Positions 6,619 through 53,464 of a stretch of 54,811 nucleotides of DNA are shown one piece after another (positions within the stretch are counted from its first letter, which is position 1; every line of letters starts with the position of its first letter). The translations under genes and the position numbers were made by a program. Source of the stretch: Ectocarpus siliculosus (lineage: Eukaryota > Sar > Phaeophyceae > Ectocarpales > Ectocarpaceae); NCBI GenBank assembly GCA_000310025.1, contig FN649751.1, positions 79,001 to 133,811 of the forward strand. The letters run 5' to 3'. Under the pieces are notes generated by a model. That model did not search any database. It saw nothing but the letters and a program-made list of their open reading frames with translations, and was not told where the DNA came from.

Positions 6619-9600
6619 AACACTTGTTCATGTCAAAATCAGATCGTCAGTACCATCGGTTGCCGTTCTGCCCTCCCCCCATCAGCGTTCTGTCCTCGCC
6701 CCATTACCGTTGTGTCCTCTCCTCATTCACCTCCTCAGGTCGAGGTTATTCCGACAGGATCGTTGTCGCTGGACCACGCCCTGGGCGTCGGCGGTCTTCC
6801 TAGAGGCAGGGTTGTGGAGGTGACGGGGCTCCGTGCTGTTCTTGCCCCCCCCTCCCCCCCGCGTTGTTCCGCTTGTTGAGTTGCGGTAGTGGCATGCCGG
6901 CCTAGACCGGAAGGCACACTCACCGCAGAAAAAAAACACCCCACCCCAGCCCTATGCATTCCCACCAACAACTCAACGCTTTTTCCTTGCGTGCTATCCT
7001 GTCATCTGTGGCGGTTGTGCTGGTCTTGATCGTGTCTAATACAGGTGTACGGGCCGGAGAGCTCAGGAAAAACCACCGTGGCCCTGCACGCGGTGGCCAA
7101 GTGCCAAAAGGCCGGTGAGCTATCCCGCCGCATTTGTTTGTTTCGTCCGTATCTGGGTTTGTTGTACTGAGTGCATCAGCGCGACTTGTTCATCCCGCAG
7201 GGGCAATGGTACCGTAAGAGCGCGAGTGGTCCCACACCCCCTAGACTGAGTTTCAAGAAGATGTCTGCTGGCGTCAGCCTAAAGCACACCTGTCGCACGC
7301 GCTAGCGCGCTCTTCGCGGTTGTGAGAAAAAAATGCAACAACACGAGAGAAACGGACGCAGAAGTATTTCATGTACGGAGGACCTGTTAGCGACTGCCTT
7401 GTCTAGCTACCACAATATCACGTCGCACCGCCGCACCCCGGTAGTGTAACTGCTTTGTAATTGTTGGTTCGGTTTAACGGCCTGCCCTGAATAGCGGCCA
7501 CATTTCGTCGTGACACTAGAGGCCGCTAAACCGCCCCCCCACTGTACTGGTATGTATTTGTTATTTTGTTTTGAGGAAGTGATATTCATTCCGGGTCTCC
7601 TGAAGCTGATTTTTTTCCTTGCTTGTCGCCATTTTCAACGACATACATGCATGCATGCAGGGGGCACCGCGGTCTTCATCGACGCGGAGCACGCCCTGGA
7701 CTCTGCGTACGCCAAAGCCATCGGCGTGGACATGACCAAGCTCTACCTTGCGCAGCCGGACAACGGAGAGCAAGGTGCGGACGAACGAGCACGCCGTGCT
7801 GATGCCGCTTTCCCACGGGCCGCACCTGCCCGGGGTGGTATGCAAAGCAAAGGGTGACGGATTGCATCAGGCCGCCCGGATCACTCCACTTGTTTTATTG
7901 CTGCACCGTTATTTGTGCGATGTCCTTGTGTGCATCTGCTTCCCCCCACCGCCTCGAGTCTGTTCCTTCGTATTCGGTGTGAAACAGTACTAGTACTTTT
8001 GTCTAAATGTGCCTTCCCCGCGCTGTGTCTTTCCCCTGTTTTTATGGTAGTTGCTTTCTTCCGTTCCCCTTTTTTTTTTTTCTATTGATACTGTTTTTGC
8101 CATGCGCCAACCTAATCTACGCACGGCTTGTCCTTCACCACGCTGGACCACGAATGGACTTACTGCTTGAAGCCCTCGACATTGTGGACACGCTGGTGAA
8201 GTCGGCGGCGGTGGACATGGTGGTTGTCGACTCTGTGGCAGCGCTTGTGCCCAAGGCAGAGCTGGAAGGGGAGATGGGAGACCATCACATCGCCCTGCAG
8301 GTATGGTGTAATTTCCGTACTCTTGGCTTCTTTTTTTTTCGCACCTGTACGTGTACATTTCTTGTTGAACAGGATAATTCTCACGCCAAGAGTTGTGCTT
8401 TGTTTTGGAAACACCTGCTGTATTGGTTCGTTTGATCCAGCAGCACGGGCTCAAAGTTGGTGCTGACCTACTCTAGCCCGTGTTATTTTTATATATATGT
8501 TTCGTTTTTTTTTTTTTCAAGTTTGACGGGCGAACAAGAGAATGTGACGGCACGTACGTGCATCGGGTTGGCAAAGTCTTTCAATCCGGCGCCCCTCTGT
8601 TGCTTTCGTTGGTGGCGGTGCCTGTACATTACATGCCGTTCCGATCTCTGCCCAGCAACTTCTAACTCCGTACAGGTACAACTGTGACGCGATTCCCCCT
8701 CGCTGGCTAGCTAGCATACCCCATGGAGGCACATTGCCGTTTTTGGCACAAGAAAACAACCCCCGGTGATATCTACCATGGTGACTTCGAAAACAAAATA
8801 TTGTTGCCGGATGTGTTGTTCGGGGATGAGCGCGGCATATCGCGTCCCCCTGTTCCTTGATCTGAGAGAGTAGTTTGATGTTTCTGGCTCATGCTAACCC
8901 GTAATAAAAATTTGAGGAGCGGTGGCGGTGGGGGTGTGCTATCTTCTGTCGTATTATGTACGGTAATCAAACAGAAAGTAATGGGCCCAGAATTGAAACA
9001 CACATGCGAGTAGTGCGACGCGAATCTTGGCGGGGTTTAAATCTTGTTTTTTTAGTCAAATTGATGAAAAATCTCGCGAATTCCACCGCTCACCTAAATT
9101 GTGTCTATGCGTAGAGTTATGTTGGCTCGCCCCTCGTGAAGGCCTCGAAAGTTATCTTGCGAAAGTCAAGGAAGCTCGTTATGAGAAAATGATACTCCGA
9201 AGTACTTCACACATCCACACAAGTACAAAAACCGGTGAGCTTAAAAAAAAAGGAAGTTTCGAACCTGTCAAAAAAAGTATTCCAAGCGGGGTTCGAACCC
9301 GCGACCTCCACCATGTCAAGGTGGCGTCATAACCAACTAGACCATCGGAACGTGCTTTGCGACGTAGAGATTAGGGCTCCTGTTGCGATCACCGATCCTG
9401 TTTCGCGTTTCACTGCCTCCCGCACAGCAGTATTTTATGTTTTGCTCTTTTACTTCTTATTTGTTGTGTAAAACCCTGGCATGAAAATTTTGGGAGAGTT
9501 CCACATTCATTCGTGGTTTGGTCAGGCTTAGACTAGCCTCGTGGTCTTGGAGCTAGGTACAGCAATACGTAGAGGACGTTTCGAAGTACATTCTGCTGGT

Positions 9601-15996: not shown

Positions 15997-16086
15997 GGAG
16001 GCTGGGGGTGACCCAAACAGCAGTTAGTTTCTAATTCGAGGCGGGGGGGGGGGGCAGAGAGAGGACCTCGTGATGAATTCTTGTAC

Positions 16087-17465
16087 GCGCGGAGGGGGAG
16101 AGCGTACTCTCTCTCATGTTTCGCATGCCTTAGCGGTAGGACAATTGACCAACGTCTTCGAGAGGACGCATCCATGTTCCAACAGGATCACTGATGCCAA
16201 TCGTTCCTTCCCACTTCGAAGTACTTTGTCAAACGTGGCCAAACCATGTTCTCCCTAGCCGATCTACCCTATATCGATATCACTTCCCGCCTTTTCAACC
16301 CACTTCTTATGCCCCAGTACAGCTACCACCGTTTTCTCCTGGCTATTCCATGCCTCAAACACCTCCCTGTACCTTTTCTTCTACATGTCCAACTCAGTCA
16401 TGTACATTTCTCTGTCCTTGTCGCCCCACACGGACGTTTCAACGACATGAACCCGGTCTTCGCTCTCGGAGTCGCATTCACATTGAACTCGTCTTCATCG
16501 TCTACCTTCCTGAATCTTCGTCAATGTTCTCGAAGGCCGTTTTCCACACTCCAAAATTTGACCTTGGGCTTTCTCCCTGAATCCATTGGTCCATGTAGTA
16601 GGTATATACCTTCTTTCAACCTCCGTACACATGGAGACCCTCCTTATCCTTGGATCCTTTTGTTATATGGTGTTCTCTCTCGGCGAAAGAAGCAGATTTC
16701 TTGTTCTCGAACCCCTCTAGATCTACCGTTCGTTTCCAATTTACCAACCTAATCGATTTTGAACTCTTCCTACGCCGTCTACAACCTTAATCCACTCCCT
16801 CCGGGTTGGTACCTCCATTTTTCTTGTTTGTCCACTTCGCCTCCCAGGCTTCTCTCGGCAATCTCTCCTCTCCCACATCGTACAACATACGGCCTACCTG
16901 CCATTTTAACCTACTTACGCCTCTTCCCGATCGTAGGAGTTGGATCCGAAGGGGGTGTACTCTCTCTCATGATTTGGCAGCCTTACATAGCGGTTAGACC
17001 GTTGACCACGCGTCCTCGACAGGACGGAGCATTGTTCCCACAGGTTCGATCACCGATGGCCAATCGTTCCTTCCTACGTTGCCAAAAAGTTCGGTCAAAC
17101 ATGTTTTCCCATCGGTATCACTTTCCGCCTTATTTTCAACCCATTTCCTATGCCCCAGTACAGTACCGTCTTCTCCTGGCTATTTACATTCGTCAATTGT
17201 CTTTCTTTCTGTACTTTTTCCTTCTACTTTTTTTCCCAGCTAGCTCAGCCATGTACATTTCCCTCTCCTTCTTGTACCACGGACATTCCGCAAGTACATG
17301 AAGGTGGTCTTCGCCCTCGGAGCCGCAATCACACCTGGGTTTGTCGTCTTCATCGTCTACCTTCATCAATCTTCGTCTACGTTCTCAGAGGCCAACATCC
17401 CCAGTCCTAGGTTTGACCTTCAGCTTTGTCTCTGCATCCATTGGCCCTCCATGTAGGTAATCTTT
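16087..17465 (-). mobile_element. decayed LINE (non-LTR retrotransposon) remnants, two copies
   Basis: Minus-strand frames, broken by stops and shifts, match the end of a LINE ORF2. In the copy at about 16940-17465 one reads RTGDVGL, then RRRRLMKVDDEDDKPRCDCG and EGEDHLHVLAECPWYKKERE, the C-x-C-G...H...C zinc-knuckle seen after the reverse transcriptase and RNase H part in many LINEs. The copy at about 16087-16625 has the same segment in worse condition (REMYMTELDM in place of REMYMAELAG). Between them a frame reads GRMLYDVGEERLPREAWEAK, also LINE-like. Both copies share the same 3' end, with a B-box-like GGTTCGATC in one. The element is inactive and its upstream part runs into the assembly gap. 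Confidence 0.65.
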
Positions 17466-18371
17466 NNNNNNNNNNNNNNNNNNNNNNNNNNNNNNNNNNN
17501 NNNNNNNNNNNNNNNNNNNNNNNNNNNNNNNNNNNNNNNNNNNNNNNNNNNNNNNNNNNNNNNNNNNNNNNNNNNNNNNNNNNNNNNNNNNNNNNNNNNN
17601 NNNNNNNNNNNNNNNNNNNNNNNNNNNNNNNNNNNNNNNNNNNNNNNNNNNNNNNNNNNNNNNNNNNNNNNNNNNNNNNNNNNNNNNNNNNNNNNNNNNN
17701 NNNNNNNNNNNNNNNNNNNNNNNNNNNNNNNNNNNNNNNNNNNNNNNNNNNNNNNNNNNNNNNNNNNNNNNNNNNNNNNNNNNNNNNNNNNNNNNNNNNN
17801 NNNNNNNNNNNNNNNNNNNNNNNNNNNNNNNNNNNNNNNNNNNNNNNNNNNNNNNNNNNNNNNNNNNNNNNNNNNNNNNNNNNNNNNNNNNNNNNNNNNN
17901 NNNNNNNNNNNNNNNNNNNNNNNNNNNNNNNNNNNNNNNNNNNNNNNNNNNNNNNNNNNNNNNNNNNNNNNNNNNNNNNNNNNNNNNNNNNNNNNNNNNN
18001 NNNNNNNNNNNNNNNNNNNNNNNNNNNNNNNNNNNNNNNNNNNNNNNNNNNNNNNNNNNNNNNNNNNNNNNNNNNNNNNNNNNNNNNNNNNNNNNNNNNN
18101 NNNNNNNNNNNNNNNNNNNNNNNNNNNNNNNNNNNNNNNNNNNNNNNNNNNNNNNNNNNNNNNNNNNNNNNNNNNNNNNNNNNNNNNNNNNNNNNNNNNN
18201 NNNNNNNNNNNNNNNNNNNNNNNNNNNNNNNNNNNNNNNNNNNNNNNNNNNNNNNNNNNNNNNNNNNNNNNNNNNNNNNNNNNNNNNNNNNNNNNNNNNN
18301 NNNNNNNNNNNNNNNNNNNNNNNNNNNNNNNNNNNNNNNNNNNNNNNNNNNNNNNNNNNNNNNNNNNNNNN
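17466..18371. other. assembly gap (906 N)
   Basis: Unresolved bases. The sequence on the right edge (18540-18700) contains inflated G, C and A runs that look like poor base calls, so gene calls next to the gap should be treated with care. Confidence 0.99.
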
Positions 18372-18375
18372 GGAA

Positions 18376-18504
18376 TTACTTGCGGGACGAGACAAACTCC
18401 TTCTGCTGCTGTCCTCCTTGCTGTCTTTTTTTCTCTTCGCCTTCGTTGCTCATACGTTCCTCCTCCCTCTGCTTGTTGAACGCTTGCTCGTAAACCTTAT
18501 CCAT
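18376..18504 (-). CDS. charged, Gln/Glu-rich C-terminal fragment
   Basis: A 42-codon frame from ATG at 18504 to TAA at 18376. It begins MDKVYEQAFNKQREEERMSN and continues with a Glu/Lys/Gln-rich stretch that could be coiled coil. The composition is protein-like and unlike the flanking low-quality sequence. It may be the last exon of a minus-strand gene (an acceptor-like CAG lies just upstream at about 18516) or part of the retroelement across the gap. Family unknown. Confidence 0.25.
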   Translation of the reverse strand: MDKVYEQAFNKQREEERMSNEGEEKKRQQGGQQQKEFVSSRK

Positions 18505-18924
18505 CTCAGTTTCGCCACTCTCTGTGTGTTTGTTGTGTAGACCATCGTTATTTCGCACAACTCCCCGAGGGGGGGGTTCCCCTCGGGGTAGCGTTGGAAC
18601 AAAAAAAACTACCCCCCCCCGGTACGTCAATTCCCCCCCGGGGGGTTTGGTTTCAGAAAAAAAAACGATCCCCTCTCCCCGGGGGGAAACTCCGACGTTT
18701 ACGGTATGTTGTTGTTGTGGAACATAAAACTTAACTGACCAAAAACTTCCCATTAAACGGAAGACGACAATAATATCCGGAGTTTCTGCTTTTGGGTGGG
18801 GGGGACGGCAAAGTGTGCGCTTATCGGCCGCGTCGTGGGCGGTGTTGTGCCACACAATTTTTTCAGCCCCCCACTATACATTCATTCATTCATGAAATTT
18901 TCGTGCATGTCGTACACGCCATGT

Positions 18925-19301
18925 CACAACACGTAGCGTAGCGGTAGATAGAATGAATGTTAAGGAGGACCCGATTCGCAGGGTATCCGTCGACTTTTAC
19001 CAGAATCGGTATACCTTCGCACATGGCGTCAGCAGGATACTGGTGGTTCGAATCTCTTTGGGTGCACGTTTTTTCTCCTGACTTGGACATTTTCCCATGG
19101 ACACAATGTGTGTCAGTCCTGAGAACACCTCTTGGAATCGATCCTATAAAGAACCTTGTGACACTTCCATCGAATTACCGTCCTGGCCACAAGAGGTTCC
19201 CAGTTGAGGGTAAATTCTGTTGGTGGAGAGTGTTAAGGAGGACCCGATTCGCAGGGTATCCGTCGATTGACTTTTACCAGAATCGGTACACCTTCGCATG
19301 A
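18925..19301 (+). repeat. tRNA-like repeat with an internal direct duplication
   Basis: A TAGCGTAGCGGTAGA A-box-like motif (about 18934) and a GTGGTTCGAATCTC B-box-like motif (about 19043) lie about 110 bp apart on the plus strand. A segment of about 66 bp at 18958-19023 (starting gttaaggaggacccgattcg) recurs at 19231-19301 with a 4-bp insertion and few substitutions. This looks like a tRNA-derived element that is partly duplicated or inserted into a relative of itself. Confidence 0.5.
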
Positions 19302-22300
19302 ACACTTTCTTCTTTGATATTTAATAAATTATTAGTAAGTCGCCGGTCCGAAAATCCCCCTACTCGTGTTTTCTTCCTTGACAAGACTTTGCGGTAGTGA
19401 ACACGGACGGGCGAAGTCTCGCGTACCGCGACCGCAGGGTGGAAGAAGGTGAACACCCTCACACATGACATGTATTTTTTTTCCTCGCCCCTTTTTTATC
19501 TCCCTCCCCCTCTTCACACCCACCCTCGCATGATGACCGCTTTTTTCACAACCCGGGCACGTTATACCGGCTCGGCCTGTAACCCCCCTACGTTATCCCA
19601 TGTAATAACCACTCGTTGGCCGGAGGTTACTCAACGCCCCCGTACAACGGTGCCCACTGGTCACCTGTCTGTGTGGCCAGTCGAATAAATTGCCGGGTGT
19701 CGGTATCTACATATAATATAGTCTCGTCTATAGTACCGGTGTTTTTCTGCTCGTACATCCTGAAATACAAAGAAAGTCGTTCGGTACTCTGAATACTATC
19801 GGTGCCTGGAATAATAGTGCTGGTAAGATCTCTGGATACCTACCGGCACTATATAACAAGTAGTCTACAGGGCCGACGCTGCTGTATTGGATGTAGTCTT
19901 TGGGATAAATGCATCATGCGGGGTAATTCCGGAATGGTTTCGGCATCTAGACTAATGGGTTGCAGTATGAACTATTGAATTCCCTACATACATACATACA
20001 TAGTCCCGCCGCGCCATCTGCAGTATATATATACACGAGTAAGTAGCACCTTGCTTGCTAGATTCGTAGCTAACGGCTGCAGGTGTCGACCTTAAATACC
20101 CTGCTTTTACATGCCGCTTCTCCCAATACTTAAACTATAGCGTATGTATGTATGTATGTGTAGTACAGGTAGAAGCTATAAAATCTGGAGCCAGCAGAAG
20201 CGAGCGGTGAAAGCCTGATAATTCTGCAAGGAAGGGCATCATCACCATCATCATGCAGATCATGTATATATATATGTGTGTATGTATGTATGTGTATTCT
20301 TTGTTATCAGGGGGCAACATCCAATAAATACACGCTGTGGATCTCAGCATCATGTGTGTTATCGCCCTGCAATTTTGCGCAGGTCAGCCACAAGTCGCAC
20401 CCCGCCGTAGTTGCTGCATGAGTGCTGTATCAAGGACGAGCCACCAGTCATTTTGCTACGGAGTTTGTGCGCACCTCCTATAATATATATTCCTTAGAGA
20501 CAAACATTTCAAATTAACCCTTGGGTCTAGTCTATCTACATGTAGCTCTTAAAAAGGAGGAAAGACTGCGGGGAAAGAGACGAGTGTACTTCTGTAGACG
20601 CAACAGCTATCTCCACCCATAGGCCATGAGGGCTGCCCGCGACAGGACGGTGGGCACAGACAGGGTCATAGACGGGTTGATGCGTGGTCGCGGTGCGGCC
20701 GCTAGGTAGGGCAGGTTAGGCTTGTAGACCTCGACAAGATCAGTCGTCATCAAGCCACCCAAACTACTCTATATTTTCAGTATATTCAAATGATCAGTGA
20801 AAATGATCAGTGAGAGGGCTTGTAGACCCATAGCCACTTTGCCATAGCAAGTTGGCCATATTGGCCATAGTGGTTCTGGGACTTCTGTACTTCTCTGTCC
20901 CCTCCCCGATGTGAGCCCTGCCGGCTCACTACAGCTCCTGTGATTTTCCCACATTTCCCACAAGCACGCAAGCACACCAGCACACACCTACCTTTGCATC
21001 AGTGGCTCTCTAGGTTCGGGTGAGGGTATATGTGGAGCTATGATGATAGTGTATGTGGTACTGCAGTACTGCTGTATGTTGGACCCGTCTACATACACTG
21101 CTGCTGCTGCTGTGTAGTATAGCTGTGCTGACATGATGACTGCTGGATCTTGGGAGTGTTGTACGATTTTCAAATTTGGAGGATATATGCAGCATACCAC
21201 GATATCCTGGCCTGGTTGGGCTTGAAGTGTTCATTTTTGCTGTCCTCCTGTCTTTGCGTTGCTTGCTAGATTCGGACGAAGCATGTATGTATGTGGAGGT
21301 ATTGATGCGTGTCTCTGTGAAATGATATGGGGAGAGATTGATGGTGGCATTGCCATTAGAGCAACGTGCATTTATTTTCCGAATTTTGGCCGTTCCAGGG
21401 ACCTTGATATACCCGCTGGCACTATTTTTCGTATTTTCATTGGTCACCGGGTACGCGGTCGATACGAATAACATAGACACACCTACCTATTGACTTGCCA
21501 ACACCTGGCGTGGAGGGATACAGGGCGGCAACTCCATGGCATGTCACAACACCAGCATGTACAAATGATCAATCAATGATCTGTCAGGACGCCTGTAGAC
21601 CCAAAAGAATGGCGCGTCTCCAGATACCCCGAATCGATTGTCGTCTCTCGGAGTGTGCTGGCGTTATTTGCCCCCGTGCACGCAGGTAGGTGCTTTTTTG
21701 TGGAGCTGAGGTGAAGACTGAAGCACGCATTGGTTCGACCTAAACAGAAGAGGCAGGTCCAGCACCCGCAACGATTTCCGCCCCATTTCCGTGATTGCCA
21801 GCTCATCTCCGCACTCAAGTGCCCCTCTAATTATCCGCCTAGAAGCCGCCGAGCTGGTGTCTCTCAAGATCCAACCGCCAGTTTTCCCACAAGATAAACC
21901 ATTCCCCCGTTGCCCCCGCCCCACACACCACAGCGGCGACATGCACCCAGAAACAAAGATGATGTGGCATGGCGTCCAAGGTGAGTTTTTGGGTGTGGTC
22001 CACGCATCCCTTAGATACCTTGGATACGACCGCGGTAGGTAGGTCATGGATGCTTCCTTCTTTCGGTGGCTGGCGTGACGCTCATCGCCGTTTTTTTAGG
22101 ATTACACCTTGATGGATGACACGGAGCATCATTTGGAAAAAGCTGCATGTAGTGATCGTGTGCGTGCGGCTGGAGGGTATCAGTGACGCTAGATGGAGAC
22201 GGAGACGGGACGTATGGGTTTGGTCCGATATGCATGGGAGGCTGGAACAAGAACACTCATATGCATACCAGGTAGACGTTCGGACGTTCGAAAGGACCTC

Positions 22301-31986: not shown

Positions 31987-34900
31987 GGCGGCTTTGCGGC
32001 GCTGGATAGACGGTTGCCGCGTCATGGCGTGAGTGTCGAATGAAAGCACGCCATGCATTGAAAGTGAGGTCGATGTGGTGATTGATTGGTGTGAGTGGCA
32101 GTAATTGTGTTATTTTCAGTGACCAAAGCGTTCAAGTGTATCGATGTCGAACTTACTGCGCTGGCATCATGGTCGAGACTCAACGGGATACGGTAGTCTT
32201 GCAAGCAGCATGGCATAACATGGGCGTCGTGTGACTCATTTGGAGCGGAGCAGTGGCGCGTTTTTCCACAGAGCCAAAAACTAAGGGGAACGTCGAATTT
32301 GTAGCAGAAGATTGCGAGGTTGGTTGCATCAGAACAAACGATTGTGAGGCTGAGGCAAGCACGCCACGGGCAATAGCGGGCCTGTAATTCAGAATCGTGT
32401 AGTTTCAATTCTTACTTTCCCTCGCCACCGTCGACAACAGAACGCTTAGATACAGGAGCTTACCGTAGGACCCACCGCTGAGCTGTGTTGTCAACCCTTT
32501 GATGTATTTTTTCATGAAGCGTTTTTCCCGCTCTCTATTTGTTTTTTTCTTGACTATTACTGCGGGTGAAATTCTGTACGATATATCGTAGATATCGTAG
32601 ATGCTGGGAAGACGACCACATGGGTCGGACGAGAGCACGGGTTTATGCTTACATCGATGCCGTTTGGCTCTTGTCGTGTCTATTTTAATTCGCACAAAAG
32701 TTCTTGTTAGAATCGGAGATGATGGTCACACACACGAATGTATGTACGGTACGGGGGCAAATAAGAAGGAGAACCTCATGTTTTCCTAGTATAAATGAGC
32801 TTGGTTTCGGGGGCGCCTTGCGTGGATGGGTCTAGGTAGCGTACGCCAATTTTTGCTGTTTTAGGTGCCGTCGTTTCGGCGACGAGGGATTATGTGGCAT
32901 CCGTTCGTTTGTATGGAGTTGGCGTGTACAATAAGTACCAGTAGTACTTCGTACGCATGCCTACGGAACGGGTCCGCAATCACCGAAAGTCAATTTCGCC
33001 GAAAGTCAATTTCGGGTAGACGCTCAAGTTCTTACTTTTGCCGCCCGCCACCGTTGTCGAGAACATGTAGGTTGTTTATAGAGAGTTTAGCGTAGGTTCC
33101 ACAGGTGAACTAGCTGTGGTTCTTAACCTCCTTTTCTGATTTATCGTAGAGATCTAGCCGCAATTGTTTGTTAGGGGCATGGTTCCTACGGTAGCTGCGG
33201 GGACCCTCTGTAAGGAAGGTTCGACCATTTGATTGCGAAGCGTTTGTGTTGTATGTTATCAAACCGAAAAAAAATCCGCAAGAACGAGGTGTGAGTGAAG
33301 ACCAGTGAAAACGATTGAAATTTGTGCAGTTTCAAAAGCTTTGGCGTTTTGACGAGATACTGTACCTGTCTCCGATGATGATGATGGTGGAAGATGGGGT
33401 TGGTCCCTACCGCGCAGCATCTGCCACATAATGCTGTAATACGAGTCATTTCATGGCAGCCCCACGGGCCCGGTAACCCAGTGAACGCGCCAAGCGGAAC
33501 AATACAGACAGCTGTCCCTTCTCGTACATGTAGATGTTCCAAAAAGGAAAATCCAGCTGGGACTACTGTAGTAACGCCGACGATGTTCGTCAGCTTCCTT
33601 TCAATCTGGAGTAAATCTTGCTTCGTTCCTTTGGTCGGCAAAGGTCGAGGGCTTGGCATACAACCAGCACCCACGCACTTTCTTCCACGGCACGGAAGCC
33701 CTCAGGGAAACTCTACGTTGCCCCCAGGAACCCTACAGCAGCAACAACAGAGAGCTTTCCTTAGCAATCGGCATCAAAGTCGCATATACAAAAGTAGTCC
33801 GACATAGCATGTCAAGGAGCAGAACATCTGTGAGTGAGCGTATGTATGGTGAGCGTTGTACGGGCACTGCATTGCACTGCACGAAAACAATTTAAATTCG
33901 CTTCCCTTCGGTCTAGGCCTTTGGACCAACAATGACGTCTTGACGGTCGCACATGCTCTGTAACTACATCATAACTGTTGTGTTCCGGCCTCTCGCTCTC
34001 TCTCTCTCGTTGTGAGCAAGGAGCGAACCTGGAATTTAGAAGGAATAGAATGATGTGGCAGCAACGGAGAGTGACACTTCCACGACTACTAGTCACACAT
34101 ATCACATCAAACACCCCAACACAACAATACAGAATGCAACACCACGTAGTAACAAACTCTTTCTTTGTGCAACCCTTCCCCCCCTTGTTCAGTGGGGAAA
34201 CCACAAGGAACGATTTGGATAGGGTTCAGTTTCACAAATTATCGGTGAGAACGAACCTCAGTTTTCACTCTTGCGGAGCGGACGCAACCGTGTAGCTCGG
34301 ACAACAGACGAGAAAGTCCGCGGGTTGAAAACGAACTTCGTTCAAGGCGCTCGTTTGTATCAGGAGCAAAGAGGGATTTGGTGGGGAGCCAGCATGCCTC
34401 TCTGTCGTCAAAGGCGCAAAACCGAAATATAATTGCGATACTGCTGCCCCTTCAGCGACAGATACGAGTGCGGATAAACTCGCCTTGCGAAGCCCGGGTT
34501 CTCGTAAAACTAACTGTCATGGGTTGACCAGGGGGAGGAGATCGTCCACTCGGGCAAGATGGGGCTCGACGGGAATGATGAGGGTCCCCGCCAGCTGCGC
34601 TAGCACCGCTCCCCCTTACTTGACCTCGACCAGCCGGCCGGCCTCCGTCTCTTCGATGAATTTGGGAACCAATTTGCAACCCGGAGGTTCCTTCACGGAC
34701 GGAAAAGAACGGCGTTCAAGTACCGGACAGAGAGGAATAGGCGTATCTGCACCCCGGACATGGGGCATTGACAAGAATGAGGAACGATCGGGACGAATCG
34801 ACTGGCAAAATGAGAGTAGCACCCACACGGCAAGCAATCAGTGTTTAGCAACCCTTCAGGCAAAAGCTACACGACTAACCAAAAAGGGTTCCCGGTGATA

Positions 34901-43076: not shown

Positions 43077-46000
43077 ATGAAATACCGTCCGTGCCTGCAG
43101 GGCTCCGATGCGGACATGGAGGCCTTGGACAATGAGGGAAAGACCATCTTTTGCGACCCTGCTTGCGAGGACACAGGCACCGACATCTTCGGGGGGACCT
43201 GGTGCAATCATTTTGGTCTGGAGGGGTGCCGTGCTTGCGACGTCTACAAGTGGGTATCCCCTAAAAGAACCGTTTTTCGAAGTAGAAGATATCGTACAAA
43301 CGTGTCTGTGAAATGGACAGGTGCAACCTCGAGTATTGTTTTCGCCTTGGGCGATGTGACCTACGCAGAACGTGTGTGCGAAATGGCCAGATGCATCTCA
43401 TGTGTGTTCTTTGCCCTTGCCGAAGGCATGCATTTCAACCACCACAAGCGTCTACCCTCACACAAACACGTTGGTCCCCTCTTGTGTTTGATTGGCCCCA
43501 TCGATCGACAGCTGCGAGGGGTCTTCGGGGGCCTGCGTCCCGTGCAACGGAGAGCTACCCGAGGAAACCACGCCGGCGCCGCAGGAGGAAGGATTGACCC
43601 TTGCTCCTATATCCCCGGGGGAAACGGATCCCCCGTTCCCGATCGGTGAGACCCTGAACAGGGCTCTTCCATTCTTGCTGCTACCGCGCAAGTTACAGTC
43701 TGGCAAGTGTGAGAGGTTGGGGTTGCGATGGTAGGTAAGTTTTTTTTTTTTCGTCATTTGTTTTTGTCAACGCGAGAGAAGAAGACGACGCCTCGGCGGA
43801 GCAGGAGAATTTGTTTTCGTGTCTGGAAACCCCGGGGATGGCTTCTGGACGTCCCCTGGCGACCGACCCCACACTCTCACGCAAACGCTATGGAGAGCGA
43901 GAGGAAGAGAGACTGGAGACATGGTTCCGTACGGGTCTGGGTGCCGCGTGGAAATCGAGGGTAAAGGTAAACGACAAGGTTTGTGCCGCGATTCGGCCGC
44001 GGCCCGCACGTCCGAGGATCTATAGGGGGAGTGGGGGTGGGGGGCGGGGGGGGAGGTGGGCTCTACACCGACAGGCGCGCATACGGACTCCGCCCAGACT
44101 ATCCGAAACGGTACAATTACCGACACCGACACGACACCGAGCGTACGAGCGACAACATGCGGAAACCACGACCTGGGAGCCGAATCTGACCGACTTTTCG
44201 TTTTTCTGTGAACGCGCCCGGCGAAAAGCTTTGAGTCGAGAGCTAGGTAGCTCGCCACCCGACCGCTTTATTTTCTGCGAAACCGGATCGAATCGGATCG
44301 GATCGTGATTTTTTTTTTTTTCCTCGGTGCCGACGTCGTCGTGTCGTTTTTGTTTTCGTTAACGTAGCGCGATGGGTGTTCATCATTAGACTATGATTTC
44401 TACCTACAGCAGTGAAGGAAAATCATGAATTTGGGCAATGCCTTGCATGTGCCCCGAGTGTTCTTTTTTACGCCCTGCTTGCTTGTGTCCTTTTTGGTCG
44501 TGCTCTCCGCAACCAATTAAGCTGTCCTGTGTGCACCTCCTGACTTGACTGCTTTGCTCTTTGCAGCTTCGCCATCCGGTCGCCCGTGTTCGCCTTTTCG
44601 CTCTCTCCGCAACCATCCAACTAACCAACCCTGTCTGCTTTGAATCATTCTCTGGGGGGAGGCGGCGCGAAATGTGCCCCCCGCCCCCCCCGCCGCTGTT
44701 GGTTTCTGTTGGCCGTCGGTGTCTCTGGGAGGGACTTTGGGCGACTGCACACACGTCCGACCAACGTCAATACCTGATTGGCCAACGCTAATCTTCCCGT
44801 TTCTCCCGTTGGTGTGTGTGTGTGTGTTGTACCGTGGTACCCCCCCCCCTCCCCTCCCCGGCCCTTTGCTGCATCAGACGCTAGTTCGTGTACCGCTGCA
44901 GCCTGCGAAGACAACGCGGATTCTGCCGACTTGAGCTACATTGACGATAACAGCCTTACGCTGTACTGCGATGACAAGTGTTCCGATACCCCCTCGGACC
45001 CGTTCGGTGGACTGTGGTGCAACATGAGGGGACTGGGGCAACTGTGCCGTGCCTGCCGCGCCGACAAGTGAGAACGAGACCAATCGCTTTCAGAGCGGTT
45101 TTCTAAATTGTCGTTTTTCCGCTCTCGAATTGTCGGTATATCTTGTGCGCCGTTTCCCTTTTGTTCCTGCCACGTTTACATTCGTGTGAGTTTTGTCGGC
45201 CTTGTCGCATTTGTTTTTGTTGCTGTGTCTCGCCCGTGCCATCTGGATGTTCGTGTGTGATATTTTGGTGGGAAACGGTGGGAAACGGGAGTGCGGGGTG
45301 TTTGCGGTGTGGTCGCCATCCTTTTTTTTTTTTTCCGGATGTGGAGTTTTTTCCCCCTTTCGATTTTTTCGGCGCGCCAGTCGGGGTCATACAAGGGGAG
45401 ATAGGTTACTTTTAAAGCGTTCTTCCCGAAGTACGTTGTAGTTGGCTCTGCGCTTCTAGAAATGTATGAGAAACCTTTGGTCCGTCACCCGCCCCCCCAC
45501 CCTATTTTTCTCAGCTGCGTGGGCTGGACGGAGGACGACACGTGCCTCCCCTGCAACGAGCTCCAGGAAACACTTCCCCCGAGCGTCACCCCGGCCCCTT
45601 CCGACCTAGAGGCCACGCCGGTGCCCGCCGCCGTTGTCACCCCCGCCCCGCTCGTGGAGGAGACGGTAGCCCCCTCCCTTGAGGTGGTGATCACCGATGC
45701 GCCGGCGGCTGCTACGCCGGCCCCGCTGTTGGAGGCGACGGCGGCTCCCGAGCAGGCCACCGAGGCGCCTGCGGCCGCTACGGATGCTCCAGAGGCGACG
45801 GTGGCTCCCGCAGGGGAAACTGTCAGCCCTGCCGCTGCTAGCCTCGCCCCCGACTTGGCGACGACTTCTGTCCCCAGCATGGCACCAGGTACTAGACTCT
45901 TTTATCATCAGGAGGAGCGGGTGTTTGTTTTGCTGCCGGCGCGGTTGAGGAAGGTTGCGTATAATACCTCGACGCCCCTGGACCGATTTATTCTCACCAC

Positions 46001-49000
46001 CCCGGGTCCTCCAACGCTGCTCAGCGGTACTTACGGTCGGTCGGTTTCTGGGTTGTGTATGTTTGTATTGCATAGCAACGAGAGGAGGGTTAAGATAACT
46101 AGGCGACAACGGGTACCAACAGCGGGTGTCAAGTGTCGAGCTTGCCCGTTTTTTGGTATCGCTTCTTTTTTTTGCCAACAACCGTAGAGTTTACTTTGAT
46201 ATCGGTGTATGTACCAAATCCAGGACCGATTCGTACTGCTGTAGATGATCTACTGGTGTTTCCGCTAGTCCGTTCGCGCCGTACATTATTTATTCATTGT
46301 GCGTTCCTGACGTTGTGAGGTGTTGTCCGTCCGCTCTCCGTCCCGACGCAGGAGCGACCGTGGCCCCTGATGGTACTCCCGCTCCCGGCGCTACGCCGGC
46401 TCCTGGCGCTACGGCTGCACCGGGTGCTACGCCGGCTCCTGGCGAAACGCTGGCTCCCGGCGCTACGCCGGCTCCCGGCGCTACGCCGGCTCCTGGCGCT
46501 ACGTTGCCCCCTGGCGAAACGCTGGCTCCCGGCGCGACGTTGCCCCCTGGCGAAACGCTGGCTCCCGGCGCTACGTTGCCCCCTGGCGCGACGTTGGCTC
46601 CTGGCGCTACGGCTGCACCGGGTGCTACACCGGCACCCGGTGCTACGCCGGCTCCTGGCGCTACGCCGGCTCCTGGCGCTACGCCGGCTCCTGGCGCTAC
46701 GTTGGCTCCCGGCGCGACGTTGTCCCCTGGCGCTACGCCGGCTCCTAGCGAAACGCTGGCTCCCGGCGAAACACTGGCTCCCGGCGCGACGTTGCCCCCT
46801 GGCGCTACGCTGGCTCCTGGCGAAACGCTGGCTCCCGGCGAAACACTGGCTCCCGGCGAAACACTGGCTCCCGGCGAAACACTGGCTCCCGGCGCGACGT
46901 TGGCTCCTGGCGAAACGCTGGCTCCCGGCGCGACGTTGGCTCCTGGCGAAACGCTGGCTCCCGGCGCGACCTTGCCCCCTGGCGAAACACTGGCTCCCGG
47001 CGAAACACTGGCTCCCGGCGAAACACTGGCTCCCGGCGAAACACTGGCTCCCGGCGCGACGTTGGCTCCTGGCGAAACGCTGGCTCCCGGCGCGACGTTG
47101 GCTCCTGGCGAAACGCTGGCTCCCGGCGCGACCTTGCCCCCTGGCGCTACGCTGGCTCCCGGCGAAACGCTGGCTCCCGGCACTACGTTGGCTCCCATCA
47201 TCACCATGGCACCGGGAACGACGCTCGCTCCTGACGCGACGTGGGCGCCGAATCTGACGAGGGAATTCATTACGGCGTCCCCTACCGTGGCTCCCACCGT
47301 TCCACAGAGCGCGGCTCCCACCGCTGTCCCAAGTGCGATGCCAAGCGCCGCGCCGAGTGCGATGCCGAGCGCTGCACCAAGTGCGATGCCAAGCGCCGCG
47401 CCAAGTGCGATGCCGAGCGCAGCACCAAGTGCGATGCCAAGCGCTGCGCCCAGTGCCTCTCCAAGTGCTGTACCAAGTGCTGCACCCACAGGTGGGATTG
47501 GGGGTGATAACCTATCGTATCGCGTCATATATGTGAATCATTAGGGGTTGAGACTTGCCGTGTGCGGTTATGCCTTCACGAGTGTCGTGGTCTCTGTCGT
47601 TCTGCGGCCGTTTTTTTTTTTGCTTGCCATACCCACCCAATGTTGTTTCCCTTGTTCTCGCTCATGCACCACATGGGGGATTTTCCTCCTTGTGGTACGA
47701 TATGGCCTGCCCTGTTCAATACTTGGCGCACATTTGTGGGCGTGTTGCTTCTGGTCTAGTTCTCGTCCGTTTGTTTACATCCGACTCGACACGACCACCA
47801 ATTGACTATGTGCCGGTTCGAAACCGTTTCAACACCACTCTTGCAGTGCTGGGAAGTACGATCGCGCCGACAGTCCCAGTACCCGTGTCGGCTACGATGA
47901 CCGCCTCTCTAGAGCTGGCGGGCGTCTTTGGGAGGACCGAAGAGGAGTTGCAGGTGGGCAGTCGGTGGCGGTGCTGTTTTAGGCTGATGCGTTTCCTATC
48001 TAAATGACCACTTTATTGGTTTGCCGAGGTTTGGGTTTTGACTCGCCTGCTGGGCGGTACGTATTGGTTATTGTTGACTGCGATGTACTGGCCGGTCAGA
48101 TTTGACTCACGGCCGGAGTGATGCTTCTGGCGTGTGGGTGTGCTGCTGCAGCTTGTTCTCTTTTGGTATTTCTGTGGAGGACTTGTGGTATTGCTGTGGA
48201 GGTTAAAAGTGTCAGAATCTCGCCACCTCTCTCTTGTGACTATTGTTGTTTTCGCCGTCTTCTTTATGTTGGAGACGCGTACGTCCCACTGCTTCCTTTC
48301 TTGTCTCCCATGTGTGTTGCTTCTCGCAGAAATTTGTTCATGCTTCTTCTCTCTTTTACACTCATAAACCGTTGTTGGTCTCTGACGATGTAGTTTTATC
48401 GATTTTGTTGTTCTGTTGTTGCTGCTGCTGCTGTTTTGCTGCTCTCTGCCCTGTCTCTTCTCCCTCACTCCCTCTTGCTGTCCGCTCCGGTTCTTGTGCG
48501 TATTTAGGCGGACCTTGAGGAAGGAATGGCCGAGGCTATCTCGGATTCCGATGACAGTGTTCCCCGTACCGTGAACGTGTCTATCGACGACCTCTCCGTT
48601 CCCAATGACGAGTCCACCCGGAGGACGCGTGTGCGCGGACGTCGCAGGCTTCAAGAGACGGTAAGCTGCAGTGGGTTTGGATTCGGATCTTGACCAGAGG
48701 TCTCGTGTAGAACGTTCTTCAGAACGTTGTGAGAGGCCCGGCCTTGAGCTGTTCTGTGTTGTGAAGAAATATGTCTTCCGGTTGCGGGTTTTGGGATGTG
48801 TGGGGCCCGAAAATGCTTTAGTCAGGGTGGTACGTAACGCGTCTGATGGCTTTTTGATGTAGATGTAGTGCATGCTGAAACCACGTGGGAATATTTTTTA
48901 CTGTGCTGTTGTACTGTCCTGTCTCTTCCAGGCGTTTTTTTTTTTTTCGGATACAGGCGTTGGTTGTTCACGTTGCCGATTGTGACCGTCGGCAACCCTC

Positions 49001-52000
49001 TTGACGCTGCATTAAAACACTGTCTGGTTGTGCAACAACTTACTCGCTCCTGTGAAGAAAAACGTAGAGGTAATCCGCATCCCTTCGCCATCACCATGAA
49101 TGATGAACAGGAATGTGTTCTCGAGAACGGTGACACGTGTACGGTCAAGGCTACCGCGACGGTGGTCTACTCTTCGGGAGCTGAGGACGACTCCGGAGGG
49201 AGCTCTGCCCGCGGCGTGGACAGCATCAGCAACAAGGAGAACCTGCAGAAGATTGCCTCTGCGGCGGGCGTGGAGGGCTCGGACGTGAGAAAAGCTTGCA
49301 TTGTGTGTGTGTTTTTGGTTGTGTTGTTGCTGCTGTCATCCTCGGACGTTAGAACGCTTGCAGTGTTGCACTATAGTTGTTGGTGTTGTTGCTGTCGGTC
49401 GTTGTTGCTAGTGGTGGTGCTGGTGATGGTGTTCGTGTTGCCGTCCTCGGACGTGGGATAAGGTAGGTATCTGCCCTTGAGGGATTTTGTTATTGTTCTT
49501 GATGTACCTCCTTGTAGGGATACCCTCTTTCGTCGCGCACGGTCACGGGCATGTAGCATCCCCTACGTCCTTTTTTTTTTTTTGACCGGTGTTTTGCACG
49601 GCGTTGCTCGACCCGGTTCACAAAGCCTCGTGCACGCTTTTTCGGACGCTGTTGTTGTCGCACTGACTCTATTTTCCCTGCTCTGTGTCTCTGGCATTGG
49701 TCCTGTCTCGTGCCGGGGGGCTCTGTGGTGCAGTTGACCCTGGGCAGCTTGATCGTGAGCGCGGACGAAAGCGACCAAGTCCTGGACAGCTCCGAGACGG
49801 ACGGTGTGGTGGGCCAGACTATCGTGTCCTCAGATGGTGCTGACGCCAGCAACTACTGGCTGTTCATCCTGGCCGCCGCCCTGCTGCTGCTGCTCTGGCT
49901 GTGCTGCCTCTGCTGGGTGAGACGGAACGAGGGTGCATAAAATCTCGAATAAAACATGGATGCCGTGATGGTAGTGGTGGTCCACCTGTTGGTGTGGTAG
50001 CTAGAATAGCTTCTGTGTTGAGTCGCGTTCACGCGGTCGGTTGCCATCCTTCGCTGTAAGGGCTACTGTACTCTGTTCCTGGTGGTTCTGCCCGTGCCTA
50101 TGCCAACCGCAGCGAGGTGTGTGGTTCTCTTCGTGATAATTTCTTTGTTCGGCGGACCTCTCGCGTGATTCGCTTTGTACTGTACCCGTCCGATTTGTGA
50201 GTGTCCAGACGCTCATCCGTACGCACGGCAGTATGCCTTGTTGGCATCATGACGGCGGCGGTGGAATATGTAGTGTCGCGTTTTGATCGCCGGCCTCCTC
50301 CATCCAATCGCATCGCATCGCATCGCTACCCGAAGTCCCTCGACGAGTGTAGGGTTTGTCGTTGGTCGTTGTTCTCATCATCATGACGGCGCCGGTGATC
50401 GTGTCGCCATTTGATCGTTGGTCCGTCTCCTCCGATCAATCGCATCTCCTCACATCGCATCGCATGTCATCGCAGGCCTGGCAGCGCTACAATATGTCGC
50501 AGGACGAGCAGGACGATACGTACGACGATTCAACCACCGGCGCGCGTTGGGCCGGAGACAAGCACCGCGACTCCTCGCCCACCTTCAAGGGGCGAGGCGT
50601 TGCGTCGTCTGACCGACAGCTGGTGCGTATCCGTCCCGTATTTGCGTGTTTTTGGTGTGTGATGTCCGGTTGTCTAGTCGGTCGGTCAGTCGAAGAAGAA
50701 CTATGGCTGTTGCTTCCAAGCTTACTTCCCAACGATGCCATGCGTCGGCGTGTTTTGCCGCTGCGCGCGCGACCTTCCTTAGCCTCGCATTGTTTTTCGC
50801 ACGGCCATGGTGAAGATTGCGATGCTTTTGTTTTTGTTATCGCTGCGCGACTAAGACGGTGCTGACGAATGTCTGGGTGGAGTCTCGACGCCGTTTTTTG
50901 TGGGGGAGCGCTTGACCACCCCTGTTTTTGGGCGTTTTTGGAGGTTGCGTGTGGTCGTTAACGCCGACCCTATCTGGATAAGATAAACACCATGGCCTTA
51001 CGGGCACGCGCCGGGCCGATCGTTGGTGAGCACGGCACATTAAGTAACTTGTCGGAAATGCATGCGTGAAGCCGTTGAGTGCAGCGACCGGGCCCACCGT
51101 GAACGCCTTCCATTGGGCCGCGTTGATCCTCTGCTCACGCACACGCCGCCTAACAACGTCGCCTGTGCTTCTCTCTTCCCCTCCCCTCACATTTCCTCCC
51201 TTTTCCCTTGCCCTTGACTTCCTCTTTGCCTGTTGTGCCCGCTTACGACGACCACCATCACGATGTAGGATACCGCTGTGGTCGAAGACATCATCTCCCA
51301 GCAGGGCAAGCGCAGGGAGTCGGGCAGCTCTTCGGGCGGCAACAGCGAACACCTCGTCGTTGGTGGCCAGGCCCTGGAGGAGATCCCCGAGGAGGAGAAC
51401 AGCTCCCCTGAAGGCGGGGTCGGGGATCAATCCCTCAGTTCCGCCGCCGCCGCTGGTGCCGGTGCGACGGGGAAGGTCAAGGCGTCTGGTCGACAGATTT
51501 TGTCCCGCGGTCAGGTGAGGGAGGGAGGCTGTCGCTGTGTTGTGTGTGTGTGTTTTTTTTTTTTTTTTTGCGTGGACATCGGCCGCGCTAACCGAGTGAC
51601 CAATGAAATGACGTGAGTTCCATCGAGTTGGTCGTGTGTTTGGGGGTGTTCTACAATAGGAGGCTTCTTGTCCTGAAGAGGGAGCGGGTTCGAGAGCTTT
51701 TGGGAAGGAATGGTGCGGTGCGACTGCCTGACCGCTTCACCCTTTGGCTTTGAAAGTGCACCGTGACTCTTGTTCACCTTAGGCCGGTACTTGCGCGGTT
51801 AGTGAAATGTTTTGAACGAAAGAAAATGGCTGAGAAGCGGCGGGGTCAACGTTTGCTGTTTACTTGAAGCAGCTAACTTTTCCTCGTGTGCCGGTCCGAG
51901 CGACAGCTTTTCGTAGTTGTTGATGAAGCTGAGTTGTTTATCCATCGACGGCACTTCTCTGTAAATACATGGTAACAAGAATAAAATCGCCCTCGGGGGA

Positions 52001-53464
52001 GAGAGCCCGCCACGCTAACAACTCGCCGCTTTTTTTATTGTGTTGTGTTATTCCCTTACCCTTTCGCCGAACCACGCCTCCGCAGCAAAAGTCCACGGGC
52101 AGCAGCTCGTTCAGCGACGAGCTTGTCGGGCCCCTAGGAGACCCCGCGGGAGGCCGCAGGTCGTCCCACAATCAATCCAGCGATCACTACACGTCCGATG
52201 GTGAGAGCGAGAGGCATAGCGGCTGCTGCTGCTGCTGCTGCTGCTGTAGCGTGCGCGCGTCTAGGGCAGTGTTAATGTTTCGGAGTGGGTGATTGTGGGG
52301 TTAGGGGGGAAGGCTTGTGGGGATTGCTTGCAAGATCGATGTTCTGTGTCGTGGCGTTAGGGTTGTCATAGAGATGGCTGGACGTGATCAAGGTTCTTTC
52401 ACCACGCCACTGTTGTTGTGGACGTGCTGAGAATCATTACCGTAGGCCCAAACAATGGCTTGTGTTTATGGACGATACATTGATATCAGTACGCGCCCGG
52501 CACTACCGTCTCACGCCTCCCACAAGAGAAACCACAATGTAGTAGCTGCGTACCCCCCTTAGCATTCCCCGGCGCCCCCGCCCTCCCGCCCCCAGACACG
52601 CGCCAGTTCGGGTCCTCCGGCATGTCCTCGGGCATATCCGGTTCCGGGTCCAACTCCGGCGGCGTGAGCTCGTCGTTTACCTCCTCGGCGGGGATGACGT
52701 CAGGATCCTTCGAGGACGACGAGGAAGACACCGACGACTCGTCCACCAGCTCGAGCGACTACGAGGATGCTCAGGGAGGAGGGGGAACCACTACCGTTTT
52801 CGACGAGGACGCGATGAAGCGAGCTGACGTGGGTCATGCTGTTTTGCTTGTTCCACCGTTTTCGACTTTCTTGTAATTTTGTTTTTTTCGTCCCATCTAC
52901 TGTTCCTTGTCGGGGAAGGCCAGCTTTACACCTTTCAGCGGAGAGTACCTGCAGCATATTTTGCGTTGTTTGTATCGTGGGAGTCGGCGGGGGGAAATGC
53001 GAGTGGATGCAGGCTGCCGCCTTTTCTGTCATTTTTATTTTGTGTTGTGCGAAGTATGTTTTCGGCAGGAGGCGTGCATGCAGGTTGGGTGTGACCCGCC
53101 ATTTGTTTGTGTGTGTGTGTTGCGCGAGGCGCGCTTTGCTCTTGTCCCTATGTCTGTCTATTCTCCCTTTTGCAGGTCCTCAACTCCATTCCACGTACAA
53201 CATTGTGTAGCCCTTCAATCGTCGACCTGTTCTACAGTACGAAGAGTTCAACATGTTCCCATTGGATGGCGCGCACGCATGCTATACAATACCCTCCCTT
53301 TTTACACACTTACGCCAATCTTGGTTCAACGCCAATCGTCGTGGTTGTTTTTCTCTGTTCGTGGCCAGGCTGGGGCAGGAGAGTCTTCGTCCGATAGAGC
53401 ACCGGCTGGGGTAACTTCCCTGGAGGAAACGGTAGCCGAAACCGGCGCCGGCGTCACCTCGTGA
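43077..53464 (+). CDS. mucin-like single-pass membrane protein with two 8-Cys modules
   Basis: Exons: 43101-43249 (open from ATG 43077), 43512-43645, 44878-45067, 45515-45888, 46352-47491, 47847-47953, 48508-48660, 49111-49284, 49734-49916, 50476-50622, 51269-51514, 52086-52200, 52596-52828, 53369-53464. All junctions are AG/GT and all phases agree: 1154 codons from ATG 43077, then TGA. Order: Cys module 1 (26-69), Cys module 2 (133-179), Pro/Thr stalk with about 45 hexapeptides APG[AE]Tx, then [10 protein letters not shown] repeats (about 180-670), a SEA-like membrane-proximal region (about 680-830) with RRRLQ near 751-755, a transmembrane helix [20 protein letters not shown] (857-876), and a 278-residue Ser/Asp/Glu-rich cytoplasmic tail. 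Probably an O-glycosylated cell-surface protein (inference). No signal peptide is visible at 43077; since 43101 follows a good acceptor (tgcctgcag), the true start is probably in an unseen upstream exon. Confidence 0.8.
46364..47195 (+). repeat. 18-bp coding minisatellite
   Basis: About 45 copies of an 18-bp unit close to ggctcccggcgaaacgct inside the largest exon of the surface-protein gene. Variation is mostly at one codon (GCT/GCG or GAA, giving Ala or Glu) and at the last residue (Leu, Pro or Ala). The block 46981-47142 is a near-exact copy of 46819-46980 (162 bp = 9 units), showing recent expansion by unequal exchange or slippage. The unit length keeps all frames open, so a 412-codon antisense frame (46290-47528) also exists and is probably not expressed. 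Confidence 0.93.
47310..47490 (+). repeat. [10 protein letters not shown] coding repeat
   Basis: A second coding repeat in the same exon, built on a 15-bp unit (two alternating versions, 30 bp together) encoding PSAMP/PSAAP. It forms the membrane-side end of the Pro-rich stalk. Similar Pro-Ser-Ala repeats are common in secreted stramenopile proteins. Confidence 0.8.
51550..51626 (-). repeat. family X repeat, short poly(A)-tailed copy
   Basis: On the minus strand: TCATTTCATTGGTCACTCGG with the continuing TTAGCGCGGCCGATG, then about 17 A (plus-strand T run 51553-51569), then (CA)n. A head followed directly by an A tail, inside the intron after the exon ending at 51514. It shows family X as a short retroposed unit. 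Confidence 0.55.
52217..52248. repeat. (TGC)n microsatellite in intron
   Basis: Eight or so CTG/TGC units just after the donor at 52201 of the surface-protein gene. It would read as poly-Cys if the intron were retained. Confidence 0.85.

What the first reader, a model, noticed from the sequence alone, without database searches (positions are those of the whole stretch)
43077..53464. Mucin-like membrane protein with paired Cys modules, minisatellite stalk and SEA-like region
Fourteen exons agree in phase and give one protein: two 8-Cys modules, a Pro/Thr/Ala stalk of about 490 residues, a folded membrane-proximal region, one TM helix and a long acidic Ser-rich tail. This mirrors the layout of animal transmembrane mucins but with unrelated outer modules. 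I know of no described family with this combination. Exon joins are seen in sequence; surface location and glycosylation are inferred.
Basis: partly seen in the sequence, partly recalled or inferred. Interest (0 to 1): 0.78.

Follow-up and report, generated by a model that had tools for sequence, protein, structure and literature searches.

The report
Brown-algal stalked cell-surface membrane protein
This is a real gene of a brown alga for a single-pass membrane protein with a cysteine-rich head on a long, probably sugar-coated stalk; it is more likely a cell-wall tether or sensor than a mucin, and its head module recurs elsewhere in the same genome.

Summary
The 14-exon gene is confirmed at 43101-53464 (+): all 13 introns are GT-AG, phases agree, and GC3 without the repeat exon is 75% against 52% intron GC. 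The interpretation changes. The stalk is 66% Pro/Ala/Ser/Thr but only 20% Ser+Thr, with 93 of 107 prolines isolated: an arabinogalactan-protein-like backbone, not a mucin domain. No SEA domain is detectable by sequence. The Cys module is not unique: related modules lie at six other loci of this genome plus one candidate, and at two they lie on both sides of a Pro/Thr stalk. No Pfam model reached its cut-off. The membrane half has no paralogue better than E 0.1. Best reading: the membrane-anchored member of a Cys-module / AGP-type-stalk family, probably a wall tether or sensor laid out like yeast Wsc1 but without its WSC domain. Layout and family are shown; sensing, glycosylation and location are inferred.

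The parts
43101..43249 (+). Exon 1 of the model: module 1, first 5 of 8 visible Cys; enters in phase 0, so an upstream exon is expected
43512..43645 (+). Exon 2: last 3 Cys of module 1 and a short Thr/Pro linker
44878..45067 (+). Exon 3: module 2, first 7 of its 10 Cys
45515..45888 (+). Exon 4: last 3 Cys of module 2 and start of the Pro/Thr/Ala stalk
46352..47491 (+). Exon 5: main stalk ([12 protein letters not shown] and PSAMPSAA repeats)
46381..47196 (+). 18-bp minisatellite, 45.3 copies, in frame
47322..47456 (+). 24/48-bp minisatellite, in frame
47847..47953 (+). Exon 6: end of the stalk, start of the membrane-proximal region
48508..48660 (+). Exon 7: membrane-proximal region, ends RGRRRLQET
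49111..49284 (+). Exon 8: membrane-proximal region with a Cys pair ([10 protein letters not shown])
49734..49916 (+). Exon 9: end of the membrane-proximal region and TM helix (about 49857-49916)
50476..50622 (+). Exon 10: juxtamembrane stretch and start of the tail
51269..51514 (+). Exon 11: tail
52086..52200 (+). Exon 12: tail
52596..52828 (+). Exon 13: Ser-rich acidic tail
53369..53464 (+). Exon 14: last 31 codons and TGA; the least certain exon (GC3 0.58)

Best explanation
The gene encodes a single-pass membrane protein of a brown alga, most likely type I at the plasma membrane. Shown in sequence: a head of two related Cys modules, a stalk of about 500 residues with AGP-type isolated prolines, a membrane-proximal region, a TM helix and a 278-residue acidic Ser-rich tail. 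Shown: the head module belongs to a dispersed family in this genome, found beside low-complexity linkers, at two loci on both sides of a Pro/Thr stalk. Inferred: the stalk is hydroxylated and glycosylated and stands out into the wall; the disulfide-bonded heads bind wall polysaccharide or matrix protein; the protein couples wall to membrane, and strain or ligand is relayed to the phosphorylatable tail, as the head/stalk/TM/tail layout is thought to do in yeast Wsc1. Minisatellite copy number would set stalk length.
For: Gene model and coding control. Stalk composition against AGP criteria (PMC8658186, passages). Module relatives: C16 (E 0.005), C4, C18 with module - TEAPVAPP stalk - module, two loci on C6, C241 with module - PTPAPV stalk - module. 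An HMM built from three modules (two of the window plus C16) scores five of eight others at 2e-4 or better; the best of 400 shuffles scores 0.063. The C4 relative opens with a signal-peptide-like segment, judged by eye, so the module is probably extracellular. AGPs and WSC proteins are reported in brown algal walls, and pathways from matrix to growth are uncharacterised in macroalgae (PMC8307928, passages). Wsc1 layout and mechanosensor role: PMC9024836, passages.
Against: No convincing signal-peptide exon was found, so topology is not shown. No transcript, localisation, glycan or ligand data. No Pfam domain in the tail. The module has no known fold or ligand; AlphaFold on the module 2 exon with the module 1 exon failed (pLDDT 48). 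Links from the window modules to the rest are weak one by one: C16 0.005 (0.022 in reverse), C18 0.013, C4 0.16 (0.096 in reverse). No TM was seen in the relatives, whose genes were not fully modelled, so the family as such need not be sensory.
Confidence: 0.45

Rival explanations
1. A cell-cell or cell-substrate adhesion receptor (gamete recognition, holdfast or rhizoid adhesion): the paired Cys heads bind a partner on another cell or surface and the stalk only gives reach.
For: A head on a long stalk with a length-variable minisatellite suits adhesins; the relatives with a module at each side of a stalk look like cross-linkers.
Against: No Pfam domain reached its cut-off in any part; a 278-aa tail is more than an anchor needs; no expression data.
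Confidence: 0.25
2. A protective glycocalyx protein: the animal transmembrane-mucin role, with a membrane-proximal SEA-type domain.
For: The order stalk - membrane-proximal region - TM - tail is that of transmembrane mucins (mucin layout recalled).
Against: Ser+Thr only 20%, at most 28 per 100; no SEA by Pfam; a walled cell has no free glycocalyx surface of that kind (general knowledge).
Confidence: 0.1
3. Two neighbouring genes: a secreted head-stalk protein (exons 1-5 or 1-6, like the C18 relative) and a separate membrane protein (exons 6-14).
For: The C18 relative reaches a stop after its second module with no TM; the TM half has no paralogue joined to a module.
Against: Phases agree at all 13 junctions, exon 6 starts in stalk-like sequence ([14 protein letters not shown]), and the intron between 47492 and 47846 is only 355 bp.
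Confidence: 0.1

Closest known systems
Chimeric arabinogalactan-protein-like proteins of brown algae (Herve et al. 2016, not held; cited in PMC8307928, passages)
   Same: PAST-rich stalk (66%) with isolated prolines beside a Cys-rich domain
   Different: The head is no WSC or fasciclin domain by Pfam; a TM and long tail follow; glycosylation untested
Fungal Wsc1-type wall sensors (PMC9024836, passages)
   Same: Cys-rich head, low-complexity extracellular stalk, one TM, tail
   Different: No WSC/PAN domain; two head modules; stalk Pro/Ala rather than Ser/Thr rich; extra membrane-proximal region
Animal transmembrane mucins with SEA domain (layout recalled)
   Same: Order of stalk, membrane-proximal region, TM, tail; tandem-repeat stalk
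   Different: Low Ser+Thr; no detectable SEA; unrelated head
EsV-1-7 cysteine-rich family (PF19114)
   Same: Another abundant Cys module of the same genome
   Different: No EsV-1-7 match in this protein

Membership tests
Transmembrane mucin | Ser/Thr-rich PTS domain (about 40% Ser+Thr; threshold recalled, not found in the passages of PMC1552070) | tested here: not met
   20% Ser+Thr, at most 28 per 100 residues
Transmembrane mucin | SEA domain | tested here: not met
   No Pfam SEA hit at E<=10; the fold itself was not testable. The genome-wide SEA search is uninformative: its controls did not ring either
Chimeric AGP | PAST above 50% in the stalk | tested here: met
   66%, minimum 54 per 100 residues; criterion from PMC8658186 (passages)
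Chimeric AGP | AG glycomodules (non-contiguous X-Pro) | tested here: met
   93 of 107 prolines isolated; 63 AP, 14 TP, 4 SP; real glycans not testable
Chimeric AGP | N-terminal signal peptide | tested here: inconclusive
   5' exon not found; the C4 relative has a signal-like start by eye
Wsc-type wall sensor | WSC domain (PF01822) | tested here: not met
   No WSC hit in the head, though 102 matches lie elsewhere in the genome
Wsc-type wall sensor | Single TM with cytoplasmic tail after a stalk | tested here: met
   side of the membrane inferred
Wsc-type wall sensor | Signals wall stress | not testable with these tools
   needs experiment
Own-genome Cys-module family | Shared Cys core ending C(N)...CRxC with a Gly before it | tested here: met
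   seven columns invariant in six aligned modules, two of them the window's; HMM control

The most novel reading that the evidence does not exclude
Brown algae evolved their own wall-integrity sensors and matrix linkers from an undescribed Cys module fused to AGP-type stalks: secreted two-headed cross-linkers plus this membrane-anchored member with a signalling tail.
Probability: 0.25. Interest if true: 0.75.

Novelty: new variant of a known kind. Interest (0 to 1): 0.5.

Why it matters
Signal pathways that link the extracellular matrix to growth have not yet been characterised for macroalgae (PMC8307928, passage). A membrane protein that joins an apparently undescribed wall-facing head to an AGP-like stalk and a cytosolic tail is a concrete candidate for such a pathway. 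The family of related modules gives natural comparisons: relatives without a seen membrane anchor against one anchored version.

Tried and rejected
Mucin label: rejected on composition. SEA: not found by sequence; the genome-wide SEA search was void because its controls failed. WSC and EsV-1-7: abundant in the genome but absent from this protein. Best Pfam scores in the gene, all far below cut-off: Lir1 E 0.48 in the head, DUF202 0.025 at the TM, RsgA_N 0.16 in the membrane-proximal region; in the relatives only KIAA1328 E 0.036 for the C4 product. PDB by sequence: no hit for the head or membrane-proximal region; the six-module profile gave four T-cell receptor chains at E 1-1.7, taken as chance. 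Viral contigs and prokaryote contigs: pattern matches but no confirmed relative. AlphaFold of the module 2 exon: pLDDT 48, so no fold search was made.

Upstream exon: the scans listed three phase-0 start sites (30085, 35845, 37337), none of which looks like a signal peptide by eye, and a signal-like start at 32514 that ends in phase 1. Phase 0 is required only if the exon joins exon 1 directly.

Genome hits set aside: C26:5580116 (E 0.135, one stop, not fetched) and C2:6459445 (fetched; the match lacks the Cys); C12:2100686 (fetched; no tblastn hit at 0.01); for the TM and tail C25, C29, C52 and C340 (stops inside) and seven further matches at E 0.77-9.6 (C25 and C29 also), taken as chance. 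The last three exons find only themselves. C87 (E 0.036, one stop) was first dismissed because I read the wrong strand of the locus; its minus strand reads CDQRC...CNWRGLGKTCRFC, so it is kept as a candidate.

HMM control: two of the decoys that scored well (6.6e-4, 0.0043) are real pieces of the window's own exons 4 and 2 left in by mistake, and a third (0.0013) is the C87 candidate. C241b scored 0.0085; C241a (0.091) scored below the best shuffle (0.063); C4a was not recovered. The eight test modules were found by chained searches that began with the window, so they are no independent sample.

Full report
The genome. The window is G000:C26:79001-133811 of a 189-Mb, 492-contig assembly. All 150 scored candidates (of 880 found) match the EsV-1-7 Cys family, and 102 matches to WSC were found among 150 scored of 244 candidates. 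With the intron-rich GT-AG genes this points to a brown alga; that EsV-1-7 abundance marks brown algae is recalled.

The gene. Fourteen exons from 43101 to 53464 on the + strand join in a single frame to 1146 residues and a TGA, with GT-AG at all 13 introns. Introns are 262-1232 bp. GC3 of the exons other than the repeat exon is 0.75 against an intron GC of 0.52. For 8 of 14 exons no stop-free intron window of equal length reaches the exon's GC3; for E2, E3, E6 and E7 about 1% or less do; E5 could not be tested and E14 is not distinguished from intron. Scans upstream gave no convincing first exon, so the N terminus is missing and type I topology is inferred.

The head. Modules 1 and 2 are 51% identical over 60-64 residues (45% over the exon parts). 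Both are split by an intron in the same Asn codon before the sixth shared Cys, so a two-exon unit was probably duplicated. Module 2 has two further Cys on its N-terminal side; module 1 may have lost them, or they lie in the missing exon. No Pfam model comes near its cut-off and no PDB sequence matches.

Relatives in the same genome. Single-protein searches chained outwards from the window found six other loci and one candidate. C16:3601277-3601531 (+): one frame with twelve Cys, ten of them in the places of module 2, ending in a stop, downstream of a Ser/Gly-rich frame. C4:4499206-4499376 (-): a product with a signal-like start and two Cys regions joined by an acidic linker. C18 about 4542973-4544672 (+): module, a TEAPVAPP stalk, module, then a stop. 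C6: two loci on opposite strands, near 1759964 and 1755663. C241 about 595.4-604.7 kb (-): module, a PTPAPV minisatellite stalk of more than a thousand residues, module. C87: candidate. Link strengths by tblastn in the genome: C4-C18 8e-7 and C26-C18 0.013, C26-C16 0.005 (0.022 in reverse), C26-C4 0.16 (0.096 in reverse), C241-C6 4.5e-5. An HMM from the two window modules and C16 recovers 7 of 8 other module sequences at E<=0.1, five of them (C18b, C18a, C6b, C4b, C6a) at 2e-4 or better; the best of 400 shuffles scores 0.063; C4a is missed and C241a scores below that shuffle. The relatives' genes were read from open frames, not fully modelled; that module, stalk and module are one gene at C18 and C241 is inferred from order and strand.

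The stalk. In 507 residues: Ala 25%, Pro 21%, Thr 15%, Gly 10%, Ser 5%; PAST 66%; Ser+Thr 20%; 93 of 107 prolines isolated, 63 of them AP dipeptides at most. This meets the composition used for AGP cores (PMC8658186, passages) and misses a mucin PTS domain (threshold recalled; the passages of PMC1552070 give no number). Whether the alga glycosylates it is inference.

The membrane half. The membrane-proximal region of about 150 residues has no Pfam match above cut-off and no PDB match. One TM helix follows, then 278 residues with 19% Ser, net charge -26 and 13 [ST]xx[DE] sites. No paralogue of this half was found: outside the gene the best scores are E 0.80, 0.12 with stops and none at E<=1, within the limits stated for searches of this genome.

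What it probably does. The layout is that of a wall tether or sensor: fungal Wsc1 has a Cys-rich head, a glycosylated stalk, a TM and a tail, and is described as a mechanosensor (PMC9024836, passages). The membership test for the Wsc family fails on its defining domain, so the claim is 'works like', not 'is'. Adhesion is the main rival. Literature: eight searches on brown algae, seen as listings (12 of 140 papers, 10 of 163), named no such module or protein family; the key brown-algal AGP paper (Herve et al. 2016) is not held and may already list some of these genes as chimeric AGP-like.

Verdict.

Noticed in passing
window about 8150-8300 (+): Exon-like frame with a RecA domain (Pfam RecA, E 2.2e-17), perhaps an organellar RecA gene.
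   Followed up: partly
L012 5711-5938 and 6775-6984 (-): Two near-identical other Cys repeats (ACCDVRCGACGGVGCSKFGEAYGL...CC) upstream of the C6 module on the same strand; the one tested has no Pfam match at E<=1.
   Followed up: no
L014 3-2387 and L017 5867-9999 (-): Very large Pro/Thr-rich minisatellite stalk (SFDFDPDYPTPAPV repeats) between two Cys modules on C241, with a short run of N inside.
   Followed up: partly
L004 1456-1611 (-): Frame VCDQRC...HCNWRGLGKTCRFC, a probable further copy of the module, on C87.
   Followed up: partly
window 16001-20000: Block of low GC (36-40%) that holds a run of N at 17466-18371.
   Followed up: no
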